Shown piece after piece: positions 3,573 through 22,097 of a stretch of 22,097 bases of DNA (its first letter is position 1; the number at the start of each line of letters is the position of its first letter). A model generated the notes under the pieces. That model did no database searches and was not told the origin of the DNA. It saw only the letters and a program-made list of their open reading frames with translations. The translations under genes were made by a program, and so were the position numbers. This DNA is from a virus, in IMG/VR virus record IMGVR_UViG_3300020174_001709, positions 1-22,097 of that record. One strand, 5' to 3'.

Positions 3573-4130
3573 ATGGCTTTACCACATTATAGAGAAGATC
3601 AAACAAGTAAAAAGAATAAACACTTTGAGCCAGTACAGGCGAATCTATTCGAAGTAAGTATACTTCCACCAGACGGAGTTGCAGGTTCTGATTTACTTCT
3701 ACAACATATCAATTCAATTGGAGGTTTAGAATCTCTAAACCGTGAAGTTGCTGCAGTTGAACAAAAGTACAAGTTTGCAACACGTTCTTATGCTGGTATG
3801 CCAGATGGAACAGCTCACGACATTACAGTTAACTTTTCACTTAACTTAAATGATTCTAATCAAGCATACGTTTATAAGACTTTAAGAGAATGGTATAGAA
3901 AACAATACAATCCAGAAACCGGTGAAATGGGTCTAAAAAAGGATTATGTTGGAACTATTGTTGTTGTGCAATTTAACAGATCTGGAGATATTTTTAGAAA
4001 AGTAACTCTTGAAGATTGTTTTATTACTTCGGCAGTTGGGTTTACAGGTACACTAGATTATAGTAACGCTGAACCAGAAGCATTAGAAATCACATGGAGA
4101 TGTGATACTTATGCTGAAGAATTAAATTAA
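3573..4130 (+). CDS. Tail tube protein (T4 gp19-like)
   Basis: Major inner tail tube protein, forming stacked hexamers inside the sheath. The 185-residue length is typical for the gp19 tube family (T4 gp19 is 163). The N-terminal half carries FEPVQANLFEVSILPP and the loop LNREVAAVEQKYKFATRSYAGMPD; the middle has the long beta strand HDITVNFSLNLND followed by the helix VYKTLREWYRKQYNPETG; the C-terminus ends in strands containing VTLEDCFITSAVGF and ALEITWRCDTY. This order matches T4-like tube proteins. A strong hairpin terminator follows within 12 bases. In T4 the next gene would be the portal; here the order moves on to a small RHH protein and the gp26-like gene, so the portal/capsid block must be elsewhere. 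Confidence 0.9.
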   Translation: MALPHYREDQTSKKNKHFEPVQANLFEVSILPPDGVAGSDLLLQHINSIGGLESLNREVAAVEQKYKFATRSYAGMPDGTAHDITVNFSLNLNDSNQAYVYKTLREWYRKQYNPETGEMGLKKDYVGTIVVVQFNRSGDIFRKVTLEDCFITSAVGFTGTLDYSNAEPEALEITWRCDTYAEELN

Positions 4131-4206: not shown

Positions 4207-4434
4207 ATGTCTATAAAAAATCATAAGTTAACTAAAAAACTTCAGGTTCTTTTAACAGAAGATGAAGTCAATCAGGTTAATAGATTAATATTAATGGAAG
4301 CTGTAGAAACTGAATCTAGACCTGTTTCGGTGAGTGCTTTTATAAGAAGTCTTATACAAAAGGAATTAAGTTCTAATGTAATAGAACAGAAATCAATAAC
4401 TAAAGATCAAATTAGAAAAATTAGCAAAAAATGA
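4207..4434 (+). CDS. Small ribbon-helix-helix-like protein
   Basis: A 75-residue basic protein. The first part LTKKLQVLLTEDEVNQVNRLI looks like a beta strand followed by helix A, and RPVSVSAFIRSLIQKEL (residues 39-55) looks like the second helix of a ribbon-helix-helix DNA-binding fold, including the SVSAFIRSLI signature common in CopG/Arc-like proteins. If so it would bind DNA as a dimer. The last 20 residues are Lys/Ile rich. It sits between a terminator and the gp26-like gene, overlapping the latter by ATGA, so the two are likely co-translated. A DNA-binding protein inside a tail gene block is unusual; it may regulate this block, or be a small virion-associated protein. The fold call is by eye. 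Confidence 0.55.
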   Translation: MSIKNHKLTKKLQVLLTEDEVNQVNRLILMEAVETESRPVSVSAFIRSLIQKELSSNVIEQKSITKDQIRKISKK

Positions 4435-5414
4435 GCGAAGAAGTAAACAAGAATAGCGAGGAAATCGCTAGAGAATTAGATGCTAGAGAAATGAAAGCAT
4501 TTTCAACACCAACCGATCAAACTGAAGCAATGGAAGATGTCATTGATCGTCAGGGACTCGGTAAAGTAAACATGGACAAATTTAAGCCAGATAGTGCTGC
4601 CGCTCCTGATTTAGTTTTAGGATGGCATGAATTCCCAACGGCAAGTTTACCATCTGAAGGTAAATTTTACCCACAAGATGCTACTATCAAAATTAGAGCG
4701 GCTAAAGTTGCTGAAATTAGACATTTTTCAACAATCGATGAGACAAACTTACTCGATGTTGATGATAAACTAAATGCAATTGTTGAATCATGTATTCAAA
4801 TTTCTTCAAAAACAACTAGAATGTCATATAAAGATCTTTGTGAAGAGGATAGATTTATTTTAATTCTTTCAATTAGAGATTTAACATTCCCAGAGCCTGA
4901 AAATTCTTTAAAGGTAGATTACAGTGGAAAAAGTGGTAAGAAGTATGAGGTTGAAATTAAGAGAGATTACTTCGATTACTTCAGAGTTCCTGCAGAAGTT
5001 GAAAAATACTACGACCCAGTACTTAGAGGATATTTAGTTAAAACTAAAACTTATGGAGAAATATTCATGAGACCTCCATCAATTGGTGTAATGCAAGAGG
5101 TTACTAAGTATATTAAAGAAAGAAGAGATAACGATCAAAATATAGATCAATCTTTAATTCAAATAGCACCATATGTTGCTTCGGATTGGAGAAGATTTAA
5201 TCAAAAGAGATTATTTGAACTTGAAGTTGAAATGAATGGATGGGATAACAAAAAATATTTATTGTTATACAAGCTTGCAGAAAAAATTAAAGTAGGGATT
5301 AAACCAGAAATGAATGTTGTTATTGAGGATGAGGAGGCCTCAATTCCTATTAACTTTCGCGACGGCATCAAATCTCTTTTCATTGTTCAAGATCTCTCTG
5401 GAGAACTTCTTTAA
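4431..5414 (+). CDS. gp26-like baseplate/tail assembly protein
   Basis: A 327-residue protein resembling the T4 base-plate family (gp26 and relatives). The family-like core is FPTASLPSEGKFYP (68-81), IKIRAAKVAEIRHFS (86-100), the helical DKLNAIVESCIQ (112-123) and LCEEDRFILILSIRDLTF (136-153), which fits the LPSkG-xxY / EE / DR-xxLL-xIR pattern. The N-terminal 60 residues are charged and probably disordered. T4 gp26 itself is about 208 residues, so this version is longer at both ends. The gene lies between tube and tape measure, the position where many tailed phages encode tail assembly chaperones. The last codons read CTT CTT TAA immediately after GGAGAA, and an open +1 frame continues for 72 codons, so a minor fused product of about 399 residues is possible. 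The ATGA overlap with the RHH gene fixes the start. Confidence 0.75.
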   Translation: MSEEVNKNSEEIARELDAREMKAFSTPTDQTEAMEDVIDRQGLGKVNMDKFKPDSAAAPDLVLGWHEFPTASLPSEGKFYPQDATIKIRAAKVAEIRHFSTIDETNLLDVDDKLNAIVESCIQISSKTTRMSYKDLCEEDRFILILSIRDLTFPEPENSLKVDYSGKSGKKYEVEIKRDYFDYFRVPAEVEKYYDPVLRGYLVKTKTYGEIFMRPPSIGVMQEVTKYIKERRDNDQNIDQSLIQIAPYVASDWRRFNQKRLFELEVEMNGWDNKKYLLLYKLAEKIKVGIKPEMNVVIEDEEASIPINFRDGIKSLFIVQDLSGELL

Positions 5415-5415
5415 A
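5400..5415 (+). other. Candidate +1 programmed frameshift site (prfB-like)
   Basis: The bases read GGA GAA CTT CTT TAA A. The last sense codon CTT is followed by the stop TAA; a slip from CTT to TTT moves the ribosome to AAA ATT AGG in the +1 frame. Upstream, a purine-rich GGAGAA ends one codon before the slip codon. This has the layout of the bacterial prfB site (AGGGGG, one codon, CTT TGA). The +1 frame has no ATG or GTG between the gp26-like stop and codon ATG 5470 (only a TTG at 5461), although its protein already looks coding from the first codons. Frameshifting is inferred. Confidence 0.45.
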
Positions 5416-5631
5416 ATTAGGTTTTATATCTATAAACACCTACATATTCAGCCAAGTGAATTGGATAGAATGGATTACTATGAATACCATTATATCATTA
5501 AAGATCTTGCAGAATTTATTAAGAAGGAAAATGAAGCCCAGAAGGGTCAACAAGAACAAACAAACAGTGCAATGGGTAATATGAAAGTACCTAATATAAA
5601 GGTACCTAAGATGAACATGCCAAAAATGTAA
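5413..5631 (+). CDS. +1-frame extension of gp26-like protein, or small separate tail assembly protein
   Basis: The 72 codons in the +1 frame directly after the gp26-like stop encode KIRFYIYKHLHIQPSELD, then a helical aromatic segment MDYYEYHYIIKDLAEFIKK, a Gln/Glu-rich linker, and a C-terminal tail KVPNIKVPKMNMPKM. The frame is open back to ATG 5314 inside the gp26-like gene, but those upstream codons look like out-of-frame translation. Independent starts would be ATG 5470 (giving 53 residues) or TTG 5461; both would lose the first part. It could be the downstream half of a frameshifted chaperone pair, as in lambda G/GT, or a free small protein analogous in position to T4 gp51. A terminator hairpin begins at its stop codon. 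The tail resembles the end of the protein after the tape measure. Confidence 0.6.
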   Translation, partial: KIRFYIYKHLHIQPSELDRMDYYEYHYIIKDLAEFIKKENEAQKGQQEQTNSAMGNMKVPNIKVPKMNMPKM

Positions 5632-5702: not shown

Positions 5703-8531
5703 GTGGGCGGAAAAGAATTATTAACACTACTATCTCCAATGAATAAGCTATCTAAGGTAGCTGAAAAGGTGGAAGAAAAGGTAGAACTTATGTATGAACT
5801 AAATGTTCAAAATCTTAAAAATGCAGAAGTACAAGTTAGTGAACTTTCGCAGCAGACTGTTATTCTTAAAGACATTAGAGCAATTCTTAAGAATGGAGAA
5901 AAGAAATCTAAAGACTCTAAAGACGGTGATCAAAAAATGGGATCTTTTGATGGTCTTAAAAAGTTAGATAAAGGAACAATCGGTATAGCCGCGCTTGCAA
6001 TGTTAAGTATAGGTGCTGCGATTGTTGCAACTGCATTTATGTTTTCTTTAATACCTGCACTAAGTCCTATGCAGATTGTGACAGCAATTGCAATATCTGT
6101 TGCATTTATTCCAATGGCCATCGCTTTTGTTAAAATAGCAAGTATTCTGCAAGGAATGAAAGGAACGACAAAGGCAAATATTGAAGGTATACCTCTTCAA
6201 AAAACAGACGGAAGTGGAATATTCCAACTTGCAGCAGGTACATTAATTTCGATGCTTGGCGTGTCCGCTGCAATAGTTGCCACTTCATGGTTAATGAAAC
6301 TAATATTACCAGTTTCAGGTGCTCAGTTAGTGACTGCAATTGCTATTGCGATTGCATTTGTTCCAATGGCAATGGCATTTGGTAAGATTAGTAAAGTTCT
6401 GTTAAAAATGAAGGGAGTTACAAAAGCAGGTATTCAGGGAATGCCTTTCCAGAAAACAGACGGAAGTGGAATATTCCAACTTGCAGGTGGAGTATTAATG
6501 TCAATGATCGGAATGTCAGCGGCAATTACAGCTTCATCTTGGTTATTTAGACTAATATTACCAGTTTCAGGAGCTCAATTAATGACAGCAATAGGTATAT
6601 CTCTTGCATTTATTGGATTATCATACGCATATGCAAAAGTTGCGGTTGCTATTAATAGGATTAAAAGTAAAAATCCAATTAACATAGGAGGTGGAATTTC
6701 TTCAATAATGCAAACAGTGGGTACTGGAATATTAGCACTTGTTGGATTTACAGCCGCGGTTGCTATAAGTTCATGGGTAATGCAGTTAATTATGCCAGTA
6801 CATCCTATACAATTATTAACGGCACTTGCAATATCTGTAATTTTTATACCTGCAGCATATGCATATGTAAAAATATCTAAAGCTCTTAAAAATCTAAAAG
6901 GAGGTAAAACTGGAATCGGACCAGGTAATATATGGCAAGCAATGGGTGTAACATTATTATCAATGGTAGGTATTGCTGCTGCATTAACATTAAGTTCTAT
7001 GATAATGCAGTTAATTATGCCAGTTCAACCAGTCCAACTATTAACAGCTCTTGCAATCGCAGTCATAATGATCCCAGCGGCATTTGCTTTCGGTATTCTT
7101 TCAAAATCACTAAGAGGAACTAACATTAAAAATTTATTGTTTACAACCGCCGGAGTAGCTCTAATTGCTATTGGATTAGTTGCAGCAGCATGGGTATTTA
7201 CCTATTTACCATCTGCATTTAACGCACCGCCATGGGAATGGACTCTTAAAACAGGATTGGCTCTTGTTGTATTTGGAGCGGCATTTGTAGCACTAGCATA
7301 TACTGTTGGAAAGCTTCCAATAAAAGATATTTTATTTGGAGTTATTGGTGTAGCTGCAGTTGCAATCGCGATTCTCGCAACTGCATGGATATTTAGTATA
7401 TTACCAAGCACCTACTTAGCACCTGATATAGGTTGGTCATTAAGCGCAATGGTTTCAATTATCCTATTTGCAATTCCAGTAGGAATAATAGGAGCAATAA
7501 TTATGGCAACTGGTGGAACTGGTTTAGCAGCCGTCGCTCTTGGTGTAATTGGAATGATTATAATAGCAGCTGGTATATTAGCAATTGCATGGATTTTCTC
7601 ATATATTCCTGCAGGTAAGCTAGCATCTGTTGCTAAGGGATTAACCGAAGCAATTCTAGCACCTATGAATGGGATTGTTGATGTTCTTGTTAGAATAAAA
7701 AACGAATTAGGGGTTGAAACCCTAATACCTTTGGCAGTAGGAATTATTGCAATCTCAGTTTCACTTATGGCTCTTGCTGGAGCAACAGCAGGAGTAGCAG
7801 CGGGAGGATTATTATCTTCAGTTGCAAATGTTGGTAAAGCATTTTTTGATGGAGTTGCAGGATTCTTTGGAGCTGAAAAATCAAAAGGGCCGATGGATAT
7901 TCTAGAAGATCTTGTAAGAATGGGACCTCGAATAATTACACTTTCCGAAGGAATGGATTTACTTGCGGGATCATTAGGTAGAGTTATAGGATATGCAACA
8001 TTAGGAAATATTGAAAAGATTAATAAGATTGTAGATTCTGTAATTCTTACAGATATGGGAATGCAATTAAAAAATGGTTTTTCTGTAAGTGAATATTTTA
8101 CAGCGTATCCTAAATTCCTTCATGATGTTGCTAAAGGATATGATGCTATTAAAATTGCTCAATCTGGAATGAATGTTGAAATTTTAGATAAAACTACCGA
8201 AATGGTAAAAGCGCTAGCATATCTTAATGAAGTTGGAGGTGATAATGCAATGGCAAAACTTGGAGAATCTTTAGTTAAGGCAGTCGGTGAGCTATCTGAG
8301 ATGATAAAGAATTTTGGAGGAAGCGTAGATGCTCAAACAGAATCAGGTCAAAAAACAGCAGGCGCTCTTGAAGGAGTTGCAGGTAAACTAAAGAATTTAG
8401 TTGGTGTTGGTGGAAGTTCATCAAGCGGACAATCTCCAGTAGGTAATTTTGACAGCGACGAAATCGTATCGGCAATTGAAGATCTACAAAGAATTATTAA
8501 AAATCAAAAATCCGGTGGATTATTTGGATAA
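5703..8531 (+). CDS. Tape measure protein with tandem hydrophobic repeats
   Basis: A 942-residue protein in the tape measure position, the length-determining scaffold inside the tail tube that is often ejected into the host envelope. Residues 1-75 are charged and predicted coiled coil. From about 90 to 700 the protein consists of about eight diverged units of 60-85 residues, most with two strongly hydrophobic segments, for example LISMLGVSAAIVATSWLMKL and TAIAIAIAFVPMAMAF, joined by a Pro-containing turn such as ILPVSGAQL or IMPVQPVQL. The last 230 residues are more polar, with a Ser/Gly-rich stretch near 905-920 and an end rich in Lys and Gly. The start is taken as GTG 5703, as an in-frame TAA lies at 5691; ATG 5739 is an alternative. 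The stop overlaps the next ATG (TAATG). Confidence 0.8.
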   Translation: MGGKELLTLLSPMNKLSKVAEKVEEKVELMYELNVQNLKNAEVQVSELSQQTVILKDIRAILKNGEKKSKDSKDGDQKMGSFDGLKKLDKGTIGIAALAMLSIGAAIVATAFMFSLIPALSPMQIVTAIAISVAFIPMAIAFVKIASILQGMKGTTKANIEGIPLQKTDGSGIFQLAAGTLISMLGVSAAIVATSWLMKLILPVSGAQLVTAIAIAIAFVPMAMAFGKISKVLLKMKGVTKAGIQGMPFQKTDGSGIFQLAGGVLMSMIGMSAAITASSWLFRLILPVSGAQLMTAIGISLAFIGLSYAYAKVAVAINRIKSKNPINIGGGISSIMQTVGTGILALVGFTAAVAISSWVMQLIMPVHPIQLLTALAISVIFIPAAYAYVKISKALKNLKGGKTGIGPGNIWQAMGVTLLSMVGIAAALTLSSMIMQLIMPVQPVQLLTALAIAVIMIPAAFAFGILSKSLRGTNIKNLLFTTAGVALIAIGLVAAAWVFTYLPSAFNAPPWEWTLKTGLALVVFGAAFVALAYTVGKLPIKDILFGVIGVAAVAIAILATAWIFSILPSTYLAPDIGWSLSAMVSIILFAIPVGIIGAIIMATGGTGLAAVALGVIGMIIIAAGILAIAWIFSYIPAGKLASVAKGLTEAILAPMNGIVDVLVRIKNELGVETLIPLAVGIIAISVSLMALAGATAGVAAGGLLSSVANVGKAFFDGVAGFFGAEKSKGPMDILEDLVRMGPRIITLSEGMDLLAGSLGRVIGYATLGNIEKINKIVDSVILTDMGMQLKNGFSVSEYFTAYPKFLHDVAKGYDAIKIAQSGMNVEILDKTTEMVKALAYLNEVGGDNAMAKLGESLVKAVGELSEMIKNFGGSVDAQTESGQKTAGALEGVAGKLKNLVGVGGSSSSGQSPVGNFDSDEIVSAIEDLQRIIKNQKSGGLFG
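6201..6486 (+). repeat. 34-bp direct repeat within tape measure repeats 2 and 3
   Basis: The 34 bases at 6201-6234 recur exactly at 6453-6486, spaced 252 bases (84 codons), and encode KTDGSGIFQLA in both. Flanking segments are also near-identical, for example CTAATATTACCAGTTTCAGG near 6300 and 6551. This shows recent duplication of a repeat unit in the tape measure gene. Confidence 0.9.
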
Positions 8532-9211
8532 TGCCAGGAGAAGAAGCACATTTTAATGCGCCAAGTAGCGTACTAAGCCAAATAAACGGAGCTGGGTCAA
8601 CAAACCCATCAGTATCGGGTACAATGGGAACAGATACTACAACTGGAACTAATTCAAAAACATCTTCAACTGAAGATAAAACTAATAGTTTTAATAAAGA
8701 ATATCAAACAACCAAACAATCTGAATACCAAGATCCTTCCACTGCGTCTAACAAAGAATTAGGAACCATAAAATCTGCACAGCCACCAAGTTCACCAAAT
8801 ACAAATGACGTTGAAACTAGTGCAGAAACAAGTGGTGAGGTTTCAGGTAAGAATATAACGGCAAAGGTAAATACTTCTGAAAATAAAAAAGATAGACAGA
8901 GTAGTGATAGTGAGCAAGGTTGGTTAGAAAGACAGGCAATGAAGAAGATTTCATCTTCAATGTCTGATTCATCTGATAAAGTTGGTGATAATAAAGAAAC
9001 TGATAATAGAGATACTGATACTTCAATAAAAAAGAGTAAAAAACCAGGCGTTGGAAAAGTTCCAGCATTAGATCAATCTAGACCTTCTCCACCTGAAATA
9101 AATCCTACAAGACCTACACCAACCCACCCTAAATCTTCTTCAGGTCCTTCTCCAAAAATACCTAAACTTTCTACGCCTAAATTCAATATTCCAAAAATGA
9201 AACTAAGGTAA
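8531..9211 (+). CDS. Disordered Ser/Thr/Pro-rich protein after tape measure, function unknown
   Basis: A 226-residue hydrophilic protein with no hydrophobic core and very low sequence complexity: Ser, Thr, Asn, Lys, Glu and Asp dominate throughout. The final third is Pro-rich (SRPSPPEINPTRPTPTHP), and the C-terminus is a Lys-Pro repeat, KIPKLSTPKFNIPKMKLR. The ATG overlaps the tape measure stop as TAATG, so the two are likely translated together. The tail resembles that of the small ORF ending at 5631. It may be a tail or baseplate accessory protein, or a linker captured with the tape measure. Not recognised as a known family; the reading frame is supported by the tight overlap and consistent AT-biased codon use. 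Confidence 0.65.
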   Translation: MPGEEAHFNAPSSVLSQINGAGSTNPSVSGTMGTDTTTGTNSKTSSTEDKTNSFNKEYQTTKQSEYQDPSTASNKELGTIKSAQPPSSPNTNDVETSAETSGEVSGKNITAKVNTSENKKDRQSSDSEQGWLERQAMKKISSSMSDSSDKVGDNKETDNRDTDTSIKKSKKPGVGKVPALDQSRPSPPEINPTRPTPTHPKSSSGPSPKIPKLSTPKFNIPKMKLR

Positions 9212-12394: not shown

Positions 12395-12723
12395 TGAATT
12401 TTGAAGTTATTCGCGATAAAGAAATCGCACTCGATAAGACTTACGGAACTTCATTGAAAGGATATATTAGAGGAGTTAAATATTCCGAACTTATTCGAGC
12501 AATTGGACAACCGACATTTGTCGAAGAATCTGGAGATGGAAAGATACAATTTGAATGGGTAGTAAATTTTAATGGAGATACCTATACCATCTATGATTGG
12601 AAAACATATGATGTTGAATATACGATAAACGAACTCGACACTTGGAATATAGGTGGTCACTCTATAGCATATGATTTTATTGACCATGTTGAGAATTTAA
12701 TTAGTCCAAAAAAGAATGCCTGA
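12394..12723 (+). CDS. Hypothetical phage protein, 109 residues
   Basis: A small alpha/beta protein with the segments GYIRGVKYSELIRAIGQPT, FEWVVNFNGDTYTIYDWK and TWNIGGHSIAYDFIDHV. This pattern of GxPT, EWxxxF, TIYDWK and WxIGG is typical of a widespread uncharacterised phage protein family. It overlaps the preceding gene by one base and the glycosylase gene by 8 bases. Function unknown; co-expression with a DNA glycosylase suggests, but does not show, a nucleic-acid role. Confidence 0.8.
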   Translation: MNFEVIRDKEIALDKTYGTSLKGYIRGVKYSELIRAIGQPTFVEESGDGKIQFEWVVNFNGDTYTIYDWKTYDVEYTINELDTWNIGGHSIAYDFIDHVENLISPKKNA

Positions 12724-13579
12724 ATTAGCAGAACTTAAACTAACCGCCGACTATATCAATAAATCCTCAAAGGGACGTACTTATAACGGTATTAAAAAGA
12801 ACCCAGCGCACAAGGGTGAGTTATTTGAGGTACCATATGCTGAATTTAGCATTAGTGCAAAGAGTCGTGGAAAGGAGATGGTTCTCTACATCCATGACAT
12901 ATTGACTGAAAATACTTTACCAGTTCGATGGACAATGGGAATGGCTGGTCACTTCAGACTTTCTAAAACTGGAGAGGAGAATAAACATGCACATATGATG
13001 TTTACATCAACCGATGGTTATACCTTGAGTTTTGTGGATGTACGTCGTTTTGGTAAATGGAAGCCAGGTTTTGAATGGTCAGATAATCGAGGACCAGACC
13101 CGACATCTGAAGAGGAAGCATTTAAACAAAACATTTACGATAACTTACACAAGCGTGAATTTGATAAGCCACTTAATGAGGTACTAATGAATCAAAAGTA
13201 CTTTAATGGGATCGGCAATTATCTACGCGCTGAAATTATCTATCGAATGGAAGACCTATATCCATTCACCGATACTAGATATGTGATTGAGAATCGCGGT
13301 GATGAGTTGTTTATGCTATGTAAAGCAGTTCCAGACCTAGCATATGTTATGGGCGGTGGAGAAATCAAGGACTGGAAGAATCCATTTAAGAATGAGACCG
13401 ACTACATGCGAACACGTTCCGACTTCTTTTTATGCTACGGAAATGAAACAATGTCGCAAATTGTGGATAAAACAGGTAGAAGATTTTGGTATCATCCTAA
13501 ATGGGACACTATTGATATGAACTCTGAATGGGACCATTATTCAGGATTACCAAACCCTAAAGCATACGAAAACATATGA
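12716..13579 (+). CDS. Fpg/Nei-family DNA glycosylase, zincless-finger type
   Basis: A base-excision DNA glycosylase/AP lyase of the Fpg/Nei family, 287 residues. The mature N-terminus PELAE supplies the catalytic P2 and E3; K53 in SRGKEM matches the conserved beta-hairpin lysine; VDVRRFGKW (108-116) is the family core strand; and NQKYFNGIGNYLRAEI (159-174) is the helix-two-turn-helix DNA-binding motif. The C-terminal hairpin FLCYGNETMSQIV...GRRFWYHPKW keeps the DNA-contact arginine but has only one cysteine instead of four, so it is a zincless finger like those of NEIL1 or plant Fpg. It would repair oxidised bases in phage or host DNA. It overlaps genes on both sides (8 and 4 bases), forming a tight unit. 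Confidence 0.9.
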   Translation: MPELAELKLTADYINKSSKGRTYNGIKKNPAHKGELFEVPYAEFSISAKSRGKEMVLYIHDILTENTLPVRWTMGMAGHFRLSKTGEENKHAHMMFTSTDGYTLSFVDVRRFGKWKPGFEWSDNRGPDPTSEEEAFKQNIYDNLHKREFDKPLNEVLMNQKYFNGIGNYLRAEIIYRMEDLYPFTDTRYVIENRGDELFMLCKAVPDLAYVMGGGEIKDWKNPFKNETDYMRTRSDFFLCYGNETMSQIVDKTGRRFWYHPKWDTIDMNSEWDHYSGLPNPKAYENI

Positions 13580-14049
13580 AATTAATACTTGTAGGAAAAG
13601 CAGCATCTGGAAAAGATCATTTAAAAACTAAACTTCGTAATAAGGGGTTTATTGCTGGAGTAAGTCATACTACCCGACCACCTAGAAAAGGAGAAGTTGA
13701 TGGGGTAGACTACCATTTTATTAAAGAAGATGAGTTTCGACAAATGATAAAAAACAATGAATTTGTTGAATATATGGATTTTAATGGCGGACTATATGGT
13801 CAAACCAAAGATGATTTTGCAGCAGCTGATGTCATGATTATGAGTAAAGAAGGATTAGATCTTTTACCAGATGAATATAGAAAACAATGTATTGTAATCT
13901 ATTTAGATATTGATCGACTTACCAGAATTGAAAGATTAAATCATCGAAAAGATAATAACGACACAATGGCCCGTAGACTACAGGCAGATGAAGATCAATT
14001 TAGAAATTTTAACGATTTCGAAATCCGGATCAAAAATAGTGATTTTTAA
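13576..14049 (+). CDS. Guanylate-kinase-like nucleoside monophosphate kinase
   Basis: A 157-residue P-loop kinase. The Walker A motif GKAASGKD (7-14) has Asp in place of the usual Ser/Thr, as also found in some phage dNMP kinases; the guanylate kinase signature SHTTRPPRKGEVDGVDYHF (30-48) binds the nucleotide base, and GLYGQTKDD (72-80) matches the YGT segment. A lid-like basic stretch RIERLNHRKDNNDTMARRL follows. It is shorter than bacterial Gmk (about 200). It probably phosphorylates GMP/dGMP or another dNMP for DNA synthesis. It overlaps the glycosylase by ATGA. Confidence 0.85.
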   Translation: MKLILVGKAASGKDHLKTKLRNKGFIAGVSHTTRPPRKGEVDGVDYHFIKEDEFRQMIKNNEFVEYMDFNGGLYGQTKDDFAAADVMIMSKEGLDLLPDEYRKQCIVIYLDIDRLTRIERLNHRKDNNDTMARRLQADEDQFRNFNDFEIRIKNSDF

Positions 14050-14087
14050 AAAACAAATAAATAAACTAGAATTTTAATTTTTATAAT

Positions 14088-14627
14088 ATGAGTAACATCG
14101 AAACACTTACACAGCAACGAGCTGAACTAGAAAAAAAGGTTGATGAGGTTCAAGTCCATCATGCCGAACACCTCTTTGAAGTTGACTTTGAAGACCGTAA
14201 AACCGTAAAATTGGTGATGGATCACCTAGACAAAGGATTTACGTGGAAGACTCAAAATGCTGCAGTTATCGTAACTTTATACGATAACCTTAAAAAACAG
14301 TATAAAGAATTGGCAACTTCTGATTCTAAAGAAACAGAAACGGCAGTAGTTTCTTTGCGAGCACATGAACTAAATGGACTTTATCAAGCTCTCCTTTCAG
14401 TTGAAGGAACTGGAGTTGAGAATGCACGCAGGTTCATTAGAATGTTAACCCTTGTCGGAGAAACAGTTACAAACGCAATGAAGGTTCTTGGTGAAATGAA
14501 TCAAGAAATTAAAGATCTTCATGTTGAGCTTTCAGAACTAGATTCTCGAATCGATGAGCTAGAAAAAGCTAATAACACTGAAGTTGTAGAACCGGTTCTA
14601 GAAGAAACCGAAACTACGGAAGGATAA
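14088..14627 (+). CDS. Coiled-coil hypothetical protein, 179 residues
   Basis: A mostly helical acidic protein: an N-terminal coiled coil (about 1-30, TLTQQRAELEKKVDEV), a central helical domain (35-130) and a second coiled coil (about 135-165, EMNQEIKDLHVELSELDSRI), ending in a Glu/Thr/Val-rich tail. No catalytic motif is visible and no family is recognised. A strong terminator follows 18 bases after the stop. Confidence 0.75.
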   Translation: MSNIETLTQQRAELEKKVDEVQVHHAEHLFEVDFEDRKTVKLVMDHLDKGFTWKTQNAAVIVTLYDNLKKQYKELATSDSKETETAVVSLRAHELNGLYQALLSVEGTGVENARRFIRMLTLVGETVTNAMKVLGEMNQEIKDLHVELSELDSRIDELEKANNTEVVEPVLEETETTEG

Positions 14628-14645
14628 TATCCTTTAGACTACTAT

Positions 14646-14688
14646 TCTACGAGCGGATTAATTTCTGCTCGTAGATATTTTTATTTAA
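14646..14688 (+). terminator. Rho-independent terminator after the coiled-coil gene
   Basis: A 9-bp perfect stem TCTACGAGC/GCTCGTAGA around a 12-base loop that can pair further (G-T, G-C and A-T pairs), followed by TATTTTTATTT. Confidence 0.85.
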
Positions 14689-14702
14689 AATCATTAGACC
14701 TC

Positions 14703-15218
14703 ATGAAACGATTTGTTATTTCTAACCTACAATTAGGTAGACCAAATGCAATAGATAATTATGATCGACCTTTCGATAGTGTAGATCAAATGGATAGTCA
14801 TATAATTAAAACATGGAATGAGGTAGTTGGACCTGACGACTTAGTTTATCATTTAGGTAATTTTGCATGGGATCCTAAAACAGCAGCAACTGCGATAGAC
14901 AAGCTTAATGGAACTATTTGGTTTATTCCAGGAGAACATGATAGTCCAATTATTGAGCTTGCAACCAAGCAAATGTTAATTAATGGAGCTGCGATTAAGC
15001 CCCATATAATGCCTCTTCATAAAATGAAAACAACAATCTCATATTGGCCTCTTAAAGAATGGCCAAATAAAAGAGATGGATATTGGTCTCTTGTTGGCCA
15101 CCCGGATAGGGCATATAAATCAGATCCTAAAGAAATGACCATTAACGTCAGTGCTGATTTGTGGAATTACAAGCCCCAAGATTTAGAGCATATTCTTGGA
15201 ATATTTCAAGACTTGTAA
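14703..15218 (+). CDS. Degenerate metallophosphoesterase (ligand-less, probable pseudoenzyme)
   Basis: A 171-residue protein with the layout of small phage metallophosphoesterases: RPFDSVDQMDSHIIKTWNEVV, DLVYHLGNFAW, LNGTIWFIPGEHDSP, ISYWPLKEW, VGHPDRAYK and NVSADLWNYKP. Intact relatives read SDTHFGH, HLGDF, GNHD, SHYP and GHxH at these places. Here they are SNLQLGR (N8, Q10), HLGN (N53), GEHD (E78), SYWP (Y114) and GHPD (D135). Of the usual metal ligands only H133, plus the catalytic-site H79, remain, so metal-dependent catalysis is unlikely. The reading frame is uninterrupted and the structural residues are kept, suggesting selection for a binding or structural role. An apparently intact relative is encoded at 10295. 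Confidence 0.8.
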   Translation: MKRFVISNLQLGRPNAIDNYDRPFDSVDQMDSHIIKTWNEVVGPDDLVYHLGNFAWDPKTAATAIDKLNGTIWFIPGEHDSPIIELATKQMLINGAAIKPHIMPLHKMKTTISYWPLKEWPNKRDGYWSLVGHPDRAYKSDPKEMTINVSADLWNYKPQDLEHILGIFQDL

Positions 15219-15240
15219 TTTTTTTTAAAATTTTTTAAGC

Positions 15241-15276
15241 CAGATTTTTTTATTTGAAAAAAAATGGTTATATTTG
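15241..15276 (+). promoter_or_regulatory. Promoter region with CAGATTTTTTTATTTGAAA and TATATTTG upstream of the sigma factor
   Basis: The 19-mer CAGATTTTTTTATTTGAAA (15241-15259) is identical to the one at 11601. The box TATATTTG (15269-15276) matches the Bacteroidetes TAnnTTTG consensus exactly. It lies 26 bases before the sigma factor start codon. Confidence 0.65.
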
Positions 15277-15302
15277 TATAGTTCTTTTAAACAAATAATC
15301 TT

Positions 15303-15914
15303 ATGAGCAAAAACAATCAAAAATCCTACCGTCAATTGGGTCAAGAATTCTTCAACACCCGTTCTGAAAAATCTTACAATGCACTTTATCAAAGAGTTCG
15401 ACCAGGACTTAAAAGTTACATTTGGAATATTCTTAAAGATGAAGAAGCAGTAGAAGATGTATTGGCTAATACTCTTCTTAAACTATGGACTAAAATTGAT
15501 CAGTACAAACCAGAATATCAAATTACTACATGGCTGTACCGTATTGCTTTTAACGAAAGCCTTGGATATATTCGAGAGCGTAATAAAAAATATAGTCTAG
15601 ATGGCATGAAAGATTTGGGAATTGAAGTTAGCCAAAATAAGTCTTTAAACGAGACTCTTTCTATGCTGATTGAAGAAGCCGATCAAAAATCAGAATCAGA
15701 TTTTTGGGAAGAAGAAAATGACTTGATGAATCGATATAACATGGCTCTTCAACTCATGAATAATCTCAAACCAATGTACCGCGATATTCTTGAAGATCGA
15801 CTAATTGGAAAAATGAAGTACGAAGATATTGCAGAAAAATATAATGTACCTCTTCAAACAGTTAAGAATCGAATTCGTCGCGGAAAGTCTCTAGTTGCTG
15901 GTGGCTTGAGCTAG
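15303..15914 (+). CDS. ECF-like sigma-70 family RNA polymerase sigma factor
   Basis: A 203-residue sigma factor with two recognisable regions. Region 2 (about 25-95) contains the core-binding and -10 recognition segments DEEAVEDVLANTLLKLW and TTWLYRIAFNESLGYIRERN. Region 4 (about 150-200) contains the helix-turn-helix KYEDIAEKYNVPLQTVKNRI followed by RRGKSLV. A charged linker of about 55 residues joins them and no region 3 is seen, as in ECF sigma factors. It would redirect host RNA polymerase to phage promoters; the GATATATA-type elements in the tail block are candidates, by inference. The gene starts a three-gene unit: one base separates it from the glycosyltransferase. Confidence 0.9.
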   Translation: MSKNNQKSYRQLGQEFFNTRSEKSYNALYQRVRPGLKSYIWNILKDEEAVEDVLANTLLKLWTKIDQYKPEYQITTWLYRIAFNESLGYIRERNKKYSLDGMKDLGIEVSQNKSLNETLSMLIEEADQKSESDFWEEENDLMNRYNMALQLMNNLKPMYRDILEDRLIGKMKYEDIAEKYNVPLQTVKNRIRRGKSLVAGGLS

Positions 15915-15915
15915 A

Positions 15916-16917
15916 ATGGAAAATAACAGTTCTATAAAGTATATTCCAGATCTTATTAGATCACAACATAGGAAGGATTTAAATAATTACATTTCTCCTA
16001 TATTTTGCGGTGGCCTCGGAAACAATTTATTCCAAATGGCCACCGCAATATCATATTCTATAGATTCAGGATTTAATTGTATTTTTGGTTATTGGAGTTC
16101 TTATAATTCTATTTCTAAATTACCAGAAAATCATAATTCAGAATGGGCAGGAAAGCCAAATCCTTTTTTTTCTAAATGGGCAGGTTGGAAATCTAAAAAT
16201 GATTTTAACCTTAAGGATTTATTTCCAAAAATAGAATGGTTTGATAATTTAGACTGTACTGCGAATGGTGATTTTTCTACAATAAAGGAAAGATTTGAGT
16301 GGGGTTTTGATTTTGACACCGGAACTGAAGGAATTTATAAACCTCTTGATATTCTTCCAGGTGAACAATTCTATGGATATTTTTTTAATAAGAAATATTG
16401 GCACCATAATAGGAATCAAATATTAGATATTTTAGCATTTGATCCTCATAGAGTAGAATATGTAAAATCAAAATATTCTAAAGTTTTAACTGAGAAGCCA
16501 ACAGTTTCTCTTAATCTTAGGATTATCGATAAAAGCGTAGCTTCAGAATCTGAAATGTTTGAGAGAAGTAAACATTTGGAACAATCGGAATTTATTCAGA
16601 ATGCTGTTAAGTTTTTTGGAAGAAATCATAGATTTATAGTTACTTCTAGTAATTGTGAAGTTGCGAAAAACATGATATATTCTAATAATGACTTAAAAAA
16701 TTACGATTTTTATTTTATAGATGAAGATTTTGATATTCAACTAATAATCTCAACGATGTGTAAAAATCACATCCTCACGAATTCTACATTTTCATTCTGG
16801 TCATGTTACCTAGATAAAAATATGGAAAATTCTGTGGTTGTTTTTGACGAGAGTTTTGAAACACTACATTCTAAAGAAATGACCCCTATTGAATGGATAA
16901 AATTAAAAACAATATGA
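15916..16917 (+). CDS. GT11-like (alpha-1,2-fucosyltransferase family) glycosyltransferase
   Basis: A 333-residue protein with GT11 landmarks: the N-terminal loop FCGGLGNNLFQMATA (30-44), GYFFNKKYW (154-162) and the C-terminal donor-site segment ISTMCKNHILTNSTFSFWSCYLD (278-300). In GT11 enzymes the central motif is HxRxGD; here VSLNLRIID has Asn200 in the His position and lacks GD, so the activity may be altered. A donor sugar cannot be assigned. Phages encode such enzymes to modify surface glycans or glycosylated virion proteins. It lies one base after the sigma factor stop and overlaps the M42 peptidase by ATGA. Confidence 0.75.
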   Translation: MENNSSIKYIPDLIRSQHRKDLNNYISPIFCGGLGNNLFQMATAISYSIDSGFNCIFGYWSSYNSISKLPENHNSEWAGKPNPFFSKWAGWKSKNDFNLKDLFPKIEWFDNLDCTANGDFSTIKERFEWGFDFDTGTEGIYKPLDILPGEQFYGYFFNKKYWHHNRNQILDILAFDPHRVEYVKSKYSKVLTEKPTVSLNLRIIDKSVASESEMFERSKHLEQSEFIQNAVKFFGRNHRFIVTSSNCEVAKNMIYSNNDLKNYDFYFIDEDFDIQLIISTMCKNHILTNSTFSFWSCYLDKNMENSVVVFDESFETLHSKEMTPIEWIKLKTI

Positions 16918-17984
16918 AAAAGAACAAGAAATTCCTTTATGATTATTTAAATGCATATGCACCCGTAGCACAAGAAGCCGAAGGTCAATCTGTATGGACT
17001 AATTATATTATGCCTTATTGCGATGAGGTTCAACAAGATGCATATGGAACTGCATATGGTATTCTCTATAAATCAGACGGCAGGGTAGATCCAAAACGAG
17101 TTGTGATTGAGGCACACTGTGACGAGATTGCATGGATTATTACACATATCGAAGAAAGTGGAATGATTAGAGTAAAAAGACACGGTGGATCTGATAATAT
17201 GATAGCACCTTCGAAGACTGTAATGATACATACACACGATGGTAAAAAGGTTAGAGGTCTTTTTGGATGGCCGGCAATTCATACAAGAGATAAATATACA
17301 TCAATGGGATATGACCAGCATGAATTATGGGTAGATACTGGCCTTAAAGATAAAGATGCAGTAGTTAATGCTGGTGTTGAGGTTGGTAACCTAATAACAT
17401 TCGATACTCAATTGGAAGAGATTGGAGACTATTATGTTGGAAGATCATTAGATAATAAGATTGGAGGTTACATTATAGCGGAGGCACTTAGAAAGATCTC
17501 TGAAGATAGTATTAAATTGCCTTATGACCTTTACATCGTAAATTCAGTGCAGGAAGAAGTTGGGCTTCATGGAGCTAAAAAGATTGCTAAGCTTTTAAAA
17601 GCTGATCTTGCGCTTGTGCATGATGTTTGCCATAATACTAATACCCCTAAAATTGATAAGGCCAAAGATGGTGACAATAAAGGAGGAGAAGGTCCTTGTC
17701 TAGAATATACGGCACAAAACCATCGTAAAATTAATCAAATGCTAAGATCTATTGCTAAATCTAAAAATATTCCAATTCAATTAACAGTTGGTTCGATGGG
17801 TAATGACACAATGGCATTTTTTATGGAAAATACGCCAACTGCAATTTTAGCAACCCCTCTTAAATACATGCATACCACTGTAGAGATGGCACATAAAGAA
17901 GACGTTAAATCTTGTATTAAATTATTTGTAGAATTTTTAAAGAATTTAACGCCATCTCAAATAGATGAAATTAATGCACGATAA
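16914..17984 (+). CDS. M42 family metallopeptidase (glutamyl aminopeptidase-like)
   Basis: A 356-residue cytoplasmic aminopeptidase of the M42/M28 clan with all expected zinc site motifs: AHCDEI (H68), RSLDNKIGG (D180), QEEVG (catalytic E214 and ligand E215), HDV (D237) and MHTTVE (H320). M42 enzymes usually form large tetrahedral complexes that trim peptides; whether this one does so cannot be seen. The length is typical for the family (about 340-360). The start is taken as ATG 16914, overlapping the glycosyltransferase stop by ATGA; an upstream ATG at 16893 would add seven residues. A host-type metabolic peptidase is unusual in a phage; it may supply amino acids from host peptides, or process a virion or host protein. 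Confidence 0.9.
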   Translation: MKKNKKFLYDYLNAYAPVAQEAEGQSVWTNYIMPYCDEVQQDAYGTAYGILYKSDGRVDPKRVVIEAHCDEIAWIITHIEESGMIRVKRHGGSDNMIAPSKTVMIHTHDGKKVRGLFGWPAIHTRDKYTSMGYDQHELWVDTGLKDKDAVVNAGVEVGNLITFDTQLEEIGDYYVGRSLDNKIGGYIIAEALRKISEDSIKLPYDLYIVNSVQEEVGLHGAKKIAKLLKADLALVHDVCHNTNTPKIDKAKDGDNKGGEGPCLEYTAQNHRKINQMLRSIAKSKNIPIQLTVGSMGNDTMAFFMENTPTAILATPLKYMHTTVEMAHKEDVKSCIKLFVEFLKNLTPSQIDEINAR

Positions 17985-19303: not shown

Positions 19304-22097
19304 TTATCTAAACACGTTAATGTGTCCGCTCGTATTAAAGGTGTTTGCTGGAGAATATCCAACACCTCTTATGATATAAACATAAACACCGTCGGAAACA
19401 TAATAGTTTCCTCCGTTCATGTTTCCTATCCAAACCTCTCCGGGTGTAGTTGAATACCAGACTAACTGTCCCCATCTGTTGTATATAAATACTTCCCATT
19501 CTAACCAGCACTCTGGATCTGTTACCACCGTCCATCCATCATTTAAACCATCATTATTTGGTGTAAATGTATTTGGAGCAAAGTAATTACCATCTACGCA
19601 GGTATCATAAACACAACTACCGTCATCGATTACTGCTTGATAATTATAGTTTATTGCCATAGGATCAGTGCACCCTGCCAAATATACGACATATTCGCAG
19701 CTACCATCTTCTATATTTGCTTCTGGGTTATAATTAAGAGCACTTGGATCCGTGCAACCATATACATCATATAGACAAGAACCATTGTCCACGTTAGCTT
19801 CAGGATCATAGTTGTTTGCTTCAGGATCCGTGCAACCATATACATCATATAGACAAGAACCATTGTCCACGTTAGCTTCAGGATCATAGTTGTTTGCTTC
19901 AGGATCCGTGCAACCATAATTACATAAGTCATCAGCATTTCCTGCATAATTAATATTTACCTCTATTTCAGTCCATCCTCCTCCAAGATTGTTAATATTA
20001 TTAACTTGAATGTATACTCCTCCTAAACCATCTGCATATACTGGAGGAAATTGAAGATATAATACTTCACCTGGTAGAAGAGAACCTTCCCAGCATATTT
20101 CTTCATCATAAAGAGAACCATAAATGTTATATGTTCCACAAAAACTAGTAATTTCTAAGGTTCCAGTGTTCTCATAAATTATTTCAGGTATGTAATAACC
20201 ACCTTCTATAGAATCACATTCAAATATAGGATTGATGTCTATGTACGATAATTCTAAAATATCATACTCACAGCTGCCATCATCTTCCGTAGCTTCTGGA
20301 TTATAATTAATAGCATCAGCATCAGTACATCCTAAAATTTCACATTCTATTCCAGGATTTCCAACAATAAAGACTGACATATTATTAGAAATATTACTAT
20401 CCTCTCCAAAATCATTCCAAGAATCAGAACTTTCTCCATTTATATGAAGAACATGTACACTAACCGCTCCATATGAATAAATTGGTATTGGCCATTCTAT
20501 AGAAATTTCACCAAATGAATTTATAGTATAGCCCATTCCATTAAAACATATAGTATCATTCGTCTGTCCTAATACTTGAATCTTAACGCAATATTCATTA
20601 ATTGCAGGATTAGTTAGGTTAGAGAGGTGTATTGTTGGTATCCAATACGGATTTGATCCATCACATCCTTCAATAATAGTTAAAGAATCTAACGATAAAT
20701 CTGAAGAATATTCGCAACTACCGTCATCTTCGTTTGCAAATTGATTATAATTATTAGCATTTGGGTCAGTACATCCTAACACAGAGCATGGATTCCCATA
20801 AACTATATTTTGATATACTGTAGTATTGTTATACACAAAATCCGGATTTTCATCTTCTGCAAAATAAATATTTACCGTAAATTCAGAAATACTTTCTGGT
20901 ATCGAAACAGTTCCTACAGTTTGACCTTCTCCTGGAGGTATCCATAAAGCACCAATCAAATTACCATTAAAGCATTCATCATATCCTATTTCTGGAATTT
21001 CAATGCAATATGACCATAATGTATCGGTTGCATTACCGAGAGCAGGAAGTAAGTTTAAAATACTTACATTCCAAATATTTACAGGATTTCCAGAATTACA
21101 TGCCGTTTGATTGAAGCCAAAATTTGGAACTGCGTCTGGTGATGTAAAATCACATCCAAAAATACTAATGTACCAATCCCAATATGAATCATCATTATGG
21201 TATGCGTTACATATTTCAAGCCCCACTTCGTAAGGACTATCACAGTTTACACATGAATTATCGCTTACAGTAGCATTGGAGTTATAATTACATGCCGTAG
21301 GATCTGTACATCCATAGATAGGGGCATCCTCGCATGTTCCATCATCAAAATCAGCATCTGGATTATAGTTTAAAGCATCTGGATCTGTACATCCTGGATA
21401 AAGAGGGGCTGGAGAATCACATACATTAATTGAATTCATATCAATATTAATATCAGGATAAAATTGAGTTTGGTCAGCACATACACCACAAGTCGCAGCC
21501 CAGCCACCGTCTGATATTTCTAATGTTTTTGAATAGTTTATTTGCCAAATAACTATTTCTAGACATTCTTCTAATGTTTCATCTTCTAATAATTCTTGAA
21601 AACAGTCATCATATTGAGAGTTATCAGAAAACAGGTTGTAATTTATTGTATCTCCGCTATAAAACTCTGCAAATCCTATTGGATTGTCCCATGTCCAACC
21701 TTGATGATATTCAGCAGCAGTACATCCCCAATTATAATCCCAACCTGGAACATGTATTGCTAACTGAATCATATTTACATAATCGGTTTGCGAAGATAAA
21801 CCGGTATTAATTGAACTGCCACAGTTAAAGTGACTAACTATTTCTATACTTACGTCATATGATATTGGATCGAATCCTATAAAGTCAATATCACAATCAC
21901 ATAACGCGTCTGAATTAACATCAGGGCAATCAGAATTAAATGGTCCATAATATGGACTACCATCTGAATTATGGACCCAAGATCCGTCAGCAAGTCCACA
22001 ACTGCCTAATCTTAAATTAACTTGAGACCATGTTCCATCAAATCCATTTGGATTAGCTGAAAAATATGGCCATTCTAATGCCTCTACCCAATATTCA
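19304..22097 (-). CDS. Large Cys-rich repeat protein with C-terminal T9SS type B sorting domain, 5' end outside window
   Basis: The frame is open to the window edge: upstream of the ATG at 21772 another 108 codons continue without a stop, so at least 930 residues are encoded and the N-terminus, including any signal peptide, is not visible. Eight copies of a linker of the form GCTDPxAxNYNPxAxxDDGSC (coding around 19609-19918, 20267-20333, 20710-20785 and 21243-21395) separate beta-sandwich-like domains, two of which look CARDB-like. The Asp/Asn-rich linkers may bind calcium and form disulphides. The last about 95 residues (19307-19600) form a gliding-motility-associated C-terminal domain: FAPNTFTPNNDGLNDGW, FIYNRWGQLVWYS, then GVYVYIIRG and a final INVFR. 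In Bacteroidetes this domain directs export through T9SS. Secreted surface adhesin is the best reading; a phage structural fibre is the alternative. Confidence 0.85.
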   Translation of the reverse strand, partial: EYWVEALEWPYFSANPNGFDGTWSQVNLRLGSCGLADGSWVHNSDGSPYYGPFNSDCPDVNSDALCDCDIDFIGFDPISYDVSIEIVSHFNCGSSINTGLSSQTDYVNMIQLAIHVPGWDYNWGCTAAEYHQGWTWDNPIGFAEFYSGDTINYNLFSDNSQYDDCFQELLEDETLEECLEIVIWQINYSKTLEISDGGWAATCGVCADQTQFYPDINIDMNSINVCDSPAPLYPGCTDPDALNYNPDADFDDGTCEDAPIYGCTDPTACNYNSNATVSDNSCVNCDSPYEVGLEICNAYHNDDSYWDWYISIFGCDFTSPDAVPNFGFNQTACNSGNPVNIWNVSILNLLPALGNATDTLWSYCIEIPEIGYDECFNGNLIGALWIPPGEGQTVGTVSIPESISEFTVNIYFAEDENPDFVYNNTTVYQNIVYGNPCSVLGCTDPNANNYNQFANEDDGSCEYSSDLSLDSLTIIEGCDGSNPYWIPTIHLSNLTNPAINEYCVKIQVLGQTNDTICFNGMGYTINSFGEISIEWPIPIYSYGAVSVHVLHINGESSDSWNDFGEDSNISNNMSVFIVGNPGIECEILGCTDADAINYNPEATEDDGSCEYDILELSYIDINPIFECDSIEGGYYIPEIIYENTGTLEITSFCGTYNIYGSLYDEEICWEGSLLPGEVLYLQFPPVYADGLGGVYIQVNNINNLGGGWTEIEVNINYAGNADDLCNYGCTDPEANNYDPEANVDNGSCLYDVYGCTDPEANNYDPEANVDNGSCLYDVYGCTDPSALNYNPEANIEDGSCEYVVYLAGCTDPMAINYNYQAVIDDGSCVYDTCVDGNYFAPNTFTPNNDGLNDGWTVVTDPECWLEWEVFIYNRWGQLVWYSTTPGEVWIGNMNGGNYYVSDGVYVYIIRGVGYSPANTFNTSGHINVFR
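19746..19901 (-). repeat. Exact 78-bp tandem duplication in the T9SS-domain gene
   Basis: Bases 19746-19823 and 19824-19901 are identical, and the first 17 bases of the unit continue at 19902. Each unit encodes 26 residues: one GCTDPEANNYDPEANVDNGSC linker plus LYDVY. Perfect identity, while the other linkers have diverged, means a recent duplication. Confidence 0.95.

What the first reader, a model, noticed from the sequence alone, without database searches (positions are those of the whole stretch)
5394..5421. Possible prfB-like +1 frameshift at the end of the gp26-like gene
The gene ends GGA GAA CTT CTT TAA A. The slip codon CTT followed by a stop, with a purine-rich GGAGAA one codon upstream, copies the layout of the prfB frameshift (AGGGGG, codon, CTT TGA). 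The +1 frame continues for 72 codons and already looks coding right after the stop, with no ATG or GTG for 57 bases. Its place between tube and tape measure is where lambda-type phages frameshift to make tail assembly chaperones. Lambda uses -1 slippage; a +1 stop-slip in a T4-like tail gene, in a host with weak Shine-Dalgarno use, would be new to my knowledge.
Basis: partly seen in the sequence, partly recalled or inferred. Interest (0 to 1): 0.8.

Follow-up and report, generated by a model that had tools for sequence, protein, structure and literature searches.

The report
Frameshifted tail chaperone in Bacteroidota phages

Summary
In 78 distinct clade-1 junctions and 52 of a second clade, a homologous small ORF always lies in the +1 frame. 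However, the +1 frame is already read upstream of the stop. In the last 36 nt of the gp26-like gene, substitutions are silent in +1 rather than frame 0 (31:6, against 133:674 upstream; Fisher 6e-18). So the invariant CTT CTT TAA reflects two overlapping reading frames (E-L-L-stop / N-F-F-K), and the 'GGAG' is not conserved. The likely slip is UUU_C at window 5355-5358: TTT in 130/130, followed by rare CGC/CGT (2% and 12% of Arg codons) or CCC (1.2% of Pro codons). Neighbouring +1 stops bound the site in 5 loci. A covarying hairpin carrying AGGAGG in its loop (window 5322-5344) lies 10 nt upstream. The short product has the T4 gp26/gp51 hub-chaperone fold. T4 itself lacks the frameshift, but its gp26 and gp51 are paralogues, so it may have replaced the frameshift by gene duplication. 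Nothing here is experimental. New variant of a known kind (tail-chaperone frameshifting).

The parts
4431..5414 (+). Short product (G-like): gp26-like hub/tail assembly chaperone, 327 aa, stop TAA 5412-5414
   Evidence: PF12322 E=0.002, below gathering; phrog_36717 E=2e-25; AF2 pLDDT 81, Foldseek to 'baseplate hub' proteins E down to 6e-10; hhalign to the T4 gp26 family E 2e-6
5322..5344 (+). Upstream RNA hairpin: AUUGAGG (5322-5328), loop AUGAGGAGG (5329-5337), CCUCAAU (5338-5344)
   Evidence: 97% of cells paired, 3 of 7 pairs with double changes, 0/500 shuffles reach the covariation score; clade 2 hairpin; hairpins with different stems in nearly all lineages; synonymous-resampling test
5332..5337 (+). 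AGGAGG Shine-Dalgarno-like element in the hairpin loop, 17 nt before UUU
   Evidence: GAG is 84% and 94% of Glu codons here, against 21-23% background; also in L049, PAU, pT24, Lak-C1, L059, MaF61; absent from MA9V, PTm1 and L060
5355..5360 (+). Proposed slip site UUU_CGC: P-site tRNAPhe moves from UUU to UUC, rare CGC in the A site
   Evidence: TTT 130/130; CGC/CGT 78/78 and CCC 52/52 against background 2%, 12% and 1.2%; none of these pairs elsewhere in about 38,000 codons of the same genes; bounded by +1 stops in L003, L018, L145, L157, L159
5359..5631 (+). +1-frame extension (T-like), 90 codons from GCG 5359 to the stop 5629-5631; long product 399 aa
   Evidence: Substitutions silent in +1 from -36 through the stop; peptide FSLFKISLENFFKIRFYIYKHLHIQPSEL conserved
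5379..5414 (+).
   Evidence: frame0/+1 substitutions: S/N 6 vs N/S 31 in -36..-1; upstream 674 vs 133
5703..8531 (+). Putative tape measure protein, 942 aa, GTG start, hydrophobic repeats
   Evidence: position, length and composition; no PHROG or Pfam hit

Best explanation
The gene between tail tube and tape measure is a T4 gp26-family hub/tail-assembly chaperone that is decoded in two ways. Most ribosomes read frame 0 and stop at 5412, making the 327-aa short (G-like) protein. A fraction slip +1 at UUU_CGC (5355-5360): peptidyl-tRNAPhe re-pairs from UUU to the equally good UUC while the rare CGC codon waits in the A site. They then read 90 codons in the +1 frame, giving a 399-aa long (GT-like) protein with a helical C-terminal domain. 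The hairpin 10 nt upstream, with AGGAGG in its loop, probably stimulates slippage by refolding at the mRNA exit and/or by catching the 16S anti-SD. Shown by comparison: +1 coding before the stop, the bounds on the shift region, the invariant UUU_C plus rare codon, and the covarying SD-loop hairpin. Inferred: that slippage is by the P-site tRNA at UUU, its efficiency, the role of the hairpin, and the G/GT-like division of labour in tail assembly.
For: +1 ORF always at the junction in clade 1 and clade 2 and in distant phages. Phase switch before the stop; syn/nonsyn classes 31:6 vs 133:674, p 6e-18. UUU_C invariant although the next residue is R, Q or P, with rare codons. +1 stops just 5' of the UUU in L003/L018/L145 (-59) and L157/L159 (-65). 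Hairpin covariation and the synonymous-resampling test. SD-like element in most distant lineages. Fold match to T4-type baseplate hub proteins. Position between tube and tape measure.
Against: No protein or ribosome-profiling data. Between UUU (-57) and -37 clade 1 evolves like frame 0 (32 S/N vs 3 N/S, at a quarter of the usual rate), so in that clade a shift nearer -39 is not formally excluded; clade 2 is dual-coded there (8 vs 7, p 0.01 vs upstream). The 17-nt SD spacing is longer than the 3 nt of prfB. MA9V, PTm1 and L060 lack UUU_C at this place, so the signal is not universal. Bacteroidota ribosomes occlude the anti-SD (PMC8710568), so the role of AGGAGG is open.
Confidence: 0.8

Rival explanations
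1. prfB-like +1 stop-slip: the ribosome pauses at TAA 5412, peptidyl-tRNALeu slips CTT to TTT and continues as ...GELL-KIRFYIY.
For: GAA CTT CTT TAA R is invariant in 78/78 clade-1 junctions and CTT_T is the prfB slip codon.
Against: The +1 frame is under coding constraint before the stop. The GGAG spacer is lost in several members. Clade 2 ends AAA GAA TAA and others end TCT TAA, TTA TGA, TTT TAA: not a common slip sequence.
Confidence: 0.06
2. Slippage at CTT/ATT_TTC, 36 nt before the stop (+1 CTT to TTT, or -2 CTT TTC to CTC TTT), where clear dual coding begins in clade 1.
For: Strongest onset of +1 constraint in clade 1 is at -38..-33; TTC invariant; motif near-universal.
Against: Four loci have CTA/TTA TTC (L026, L041, L080, L104), which breaks re-pairing. 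It does not explain rare CGY/CCC and TTT in 130/130, nor the hairpin placed 10 nt before UUU. Clade 2 looks dual-coded further upstream.
Confidence: 0.12
3. The small protein is a separate overlapping gene with its own start codon (reinitiation).
For: ATG at -26/-29 in the +1 frame of clade 2; MaF61 has ATGAGTAAT over the stop and is annotated that way.
Against: No conserved start in clade 1: 13/78 have no ATG/GTG/TTG between the +1 stop and the onset of dual coding. Conserved +1 codons lie upstream of every candidate start, including FSLF before the clade 2 ATG and SLFQVDL before the MaF61 ATG.
Confidence: 0.05

Closest known systems
Lambda G/GT and related tail assembly chaperone frameshifts (Xu 2004; reviewed in PMC5009743)
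   Same: Gene between tail tube and tape measure; short protein plus frameshift-extended protein.
   Different: Lambda shifts -1; here +1 at UUU_C with an SD-loop hairpin; the chaperone has the T4 gp26 fold, and T4 is named in that review as the exception lacking the frameshift.
T4 gp26 and gp51 (hub assembly chaperones, PMC3004832)
   Same: Short product matches the gp26/gp51 fold. gp26 and gp51 are paralogues, gp51 having a 46-aa C-terminal addition.
   Different: T4 uses two genes and no frameshift. Homology of the +1 domain to the gp51 addition was not significant.
prfB (RF2) +1 frameshift, including F. johnsoniae AGGAGG UAU CUU UGA C (PMC8710568)
   Same: +1 direction; perfect SD-like element in a phylum that rarely uses SD.
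   Different: No stop codon at the inferred slip; UUU rather than CUU; SD 14-20 nt away and in a hairpin loop instead of 3 nt away.
+1 frameshifts in phage structural genes: Listeria PSA/A118/A500 (CCC_UGA, tail), HSTV-2 haloarchaeal myovirus (PMC5009743)
   Same: +1 direction in tail genes; HSTV-2 also has a contractile tail.
   Different: CCC_UGA stop-slip in the Listeria tail genes; the HSTV-2 site was not compared here.

Membership tests
prfB-type stop-slip frameshift | Frame switches at a sense codon immediately before the zero-frame stop | tested here: not met
   +1 frame constrained at least 36 nt before the stop
prfB-type stop-slip frameshift | SD-like sequence about 3 nt before the slip codon | tested here: not met
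   GGA replaced in several members; the conserved AGGAGG is 14-20 nt before UUU
prfB-type stop-slip frameshift | Dependence on release-factor level | not testable with these tools
   needs experiment
G/GT tail assembly chaperone system | Gene pair between tail tube and tape measure | tested here: met
   tube 3573-4130 (phrog_32623/phrog_45); long hydrophobic ORF 5703-8531 (tape measure assigned by position)
G/GT tail assembly chaperone system | Extended protein made by ribosomal frameshifting | tested here: inconclusive
   comparative evidence strong; product not seen
G/GT tail assembly chaperone system | -1 slippery heptamer as in lambda | tested here: not met
   extension is always in the +1 frame
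T4 gp26/gp51 hub chaperone family | gp26/gp51 fold | tested here: met
   Foldseek to baseplate hub proteins of T4-like phages, E 6e-10 to 8e-4; hhalign E 2e-6
T4 gp26/gp51 hub chaperone family | Pfam PF12322 above gathering score | tested here: not met
   18.2 bits against 24.5
T4 gp26/gp51 hub chaperone family | +1 domain homologous to the gp51 C-terminus | tested here: inconclusive
   hhalign E 0.03, same as controls; T-domain fold search nothing

The most novel reading that the evidence does not exclude
Contractile-tail phages of Bacteroidota, hosts whose ribosomes hide the anti-SD, use a hairpin that presents AGGAGG to a translating ribosome to drive +1 slippage at UUU_C before a rare codon; and T4's long-noted lack of the tail-chaperone frameshift is explained because it split the same short/long pair into two paralogous genes, gp26 and gp51.
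Probability: 0.4. Interest if true: 0.78.

Novelty: new variant of a known kind. Interest (0 to 1): 0.64.

Why it matters
T4-like phages have been the exception to the conserved tail-chaperone frameshift. A +1 frameshift in a gp26-family gene, conserved across much of the known diversity of large Bacteroidota phages including Lak megaphages, would fill that gap and suggest that gp26 and gp51 of T4 are the short and long forms. It also offers a natural, testable case of a Shine-Dalgarno element acting on elongating ribosomes in a phylum that does not use it for initiation, and shows that these genes are mis-annotated as unrelated small ORFs.

Tried and rejected
Slip at CTT TAA (rejected by codon-position patterns). 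Slip at CTT TTC (kept as rival). Independent start. Homology of the +1 domain with the gp51 C-terminus: eye alignment attractive, profiles not significant. Fold search of the +1 domain: nothing significant. Genome contigs and MA9V scans found no relatives. Paper searches found no description of this frameshift; only open-licence papers were searchable. Transcriptional slippage dismissed on sequence grounds: the site has only a run of three T.

Full report
Observation. The junction is as described. Gene 4431-5414 ends GGA GAA CTT CTT TAA A, and a +1 frame runs on for 72 codons to 5631. It sits between the tail tube (3573-4130) and a 942-residue hydrophobic ORF that I take by position to be the tape measure. 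The product hits PF12322, T4 gp26, only below the curated cut-off (18.2 bits against 24.5).

Conservation. IMG/VR scans gave 48 and then 80 loci. In 78 distinct junctions the core GAA CTT CTT TAA (A/G) is invariant and a +1 ORF of 65-80 codons follows. GGA, the supposed SD-like part, is replaced by GGC (4), CAA (3), ACA (1) and TCA (1). More distant phages (Lak-B5 and Lak-C1, MaF61, MA9V-1/-2, pT24, PAU, PTm1, and huge-phage assemblies LR756500, LR745206, LR756501, LR756504) also have an ORF in the +1 frame there, mostly with a recognisable QPSE..MPYYE-like motif, but with different zero-frame ends: TCT TAA, TTA TGA, TTT TAA, GAA TAA. A second clade of 52 distinct junctions (relatives of LR745206) ends AAA GAA TAA. 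So the +1 partner is ancient and the sequence at the stop is not.

Where the frame changes. I counted parsimony changes by codon position. Up to about 40 nt before the stop, frame-0 third positions change most. In the last 30 nt of clade 1, frame-0 third positions change 3 times and first positions, which are the silent positions of the +1 frame, 28 times. Classified by effect, -36..-1 has 31 changes silent only in +1 and 6 silent only in frame 0, against 133 and 674 upstream (Fisher p 6e-18; changes on a tree, not fully independent). The +1 frame is therefore translated before the stop. GAA CTT CTT TAA encodes E-L-L-stop and N-F-F-K at once, which explains its invariance without any slip there.

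Bounds and slip site. In L003, L018 and L145 a +1 stop ends at -60, and in L157 and L159 at -66, directly before the codon TTT at -57 (clade 1) or -63 (clade 2). So the shift lies at or after this TTT and before the onset of dual coding. That TTT is present in 78/78 and 52/52, and the next codon always begins with C although it encodes Arg, Gln or Pro in different lineages. In clade 1 the Arg codon is CGC (39) or CGT (39), against 77% AGA, 12% CGT and 2% CGC elsewhere in the same genes. In clade 2 it is CCC in 52/52, against 1.2% of Pro codons. TTT followed by CGN or CCC does not occur in frame elsewhere in about 38,000 codons of these genes. UUU_C is a perfect +1 re-pairing site for tRNAPhe, with a slow codon in the A site. 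TTT_C is also found at the corresponding place in L049, both Lak phages, PAU, pT24, L059 and MaF61. MA9V, PTm1 and L060 do not have it there.

Upstream element. About 14-20 nt before the UUU all close lineages carry GGAG or AGGAGG(T), with Glu encoded by GAG in 84% and 94% of cases against a 21-23% background. It lies in the loop of a hairpin whose stem differs between groups (AUUGAGG/CCUCAAU in the window, GGGGAC/GUCCCU, UUGAUG/CGUUGA, GUGUGG/CCACAC) while the arrangement stays. In 15 window-like sequences 97% of cells pair, three of seven pairs show double changes, and no shuffle of 500 reaches the covariation score. Clade 2 gives four double-change cells (1 of 500 shuffles). Folding energy beats most synonymous resamplings (mean p 0.036 and 0.065). 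GGAGG at similar spacing is seen in L049, PAU, pT24, Lak-C1, L059 and MaF61. MA9V lacks it; its host group (Weeksellaceae) has an altered anti-SD and lacks prfB frameshifting (PMC8710568), a suggestive natural control resting on one phage pair. No downstream structure stood out.

Function. The short product is predicted with pLDDT 81 and matches T4-type baseplate hub proteins, including 'baseplate hub assembly chaperone' and a gp51-like protein. The family aligns with T4 gp26 by hhalign at E 2e-6. The +1 part is predicted as three helices with modest confidence and had no significant match. By position and product structure the pair works like lambda G/GT.

T4. The review literature names T4 as the exception to the conserved tail-chaperone frameshift (PMC5009743). 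T4 gp26 and gp51 both match phrog_150, align with each other at hhalign E 2e-23, and gp51 is gp26 plus about 46 C-terminal residues. The simple reading is that T4 encodes the short and long forms as two genes. I could not show that the gp51 addition is homologous to the +1 domain, so this stays a hypothesis.

Limits. No experiment is involved. In clade 1 the 18 nt after UUU look mainly frame-0 constrained, with a fourfold lower rate, so I keep a shift at CTT_TTC as a rival although four loci break it. Literature was searched only in open-licence papers.

Noticed in passing
window 5590-5628 and 9150-9208: The +1 domain ends in repeated K-x-P-x-M motifs (MKVPNIKVPKMNMPKM), and the protein encoded just after the tape measure (8531-9211) also ends in ...PKIPKLSTPKFNIPKMKLR; a shared C-terminal motif suggests a common binding partner.
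   Followed up: partly
L050 (Lak-B5), about 5847: The +1 frame of Lak-B5 has a TAG where Lak-C1 has GAG (Glu), consistent with TAG read as Gln (code 15) in this frameshift extension.
   Followed up: partly
clade 2 loci L156-L235, 6 nt before the TTT: An in-frame ATG about 11 nt after AGGAGG is conserved, recalling T4 gp26' internal initiation; it may make a short C-terminal peptide or its frameshifted form.
   Followed up: no
window 19304-21772, - strand: An 822-aa protein with repeated CTDP.A.NYNP.A..DDGSC units and a C-terminal domain that looks like a T9SS/gliding-motility sorting domain, unusual for a phage.
   Followed up: no
L055 (BPT24_131), L053 (MA9V1_007), L056 (PAU_94), L057 (PTm1 ORF-023): In public records the +1 extension is annotated as a small separate hypothetical ORF with an implausible start.
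   Followed up: partly
window 12716-17984: Host-like genes by eye: formamidopyrimidine-DNA-glycosylase-like (12716), guanylate kinase-like (13576), sigma-factor-like (15303), fucosyltransferase-like (15916), M42-peptidase-like (16893).
   Followed up: no
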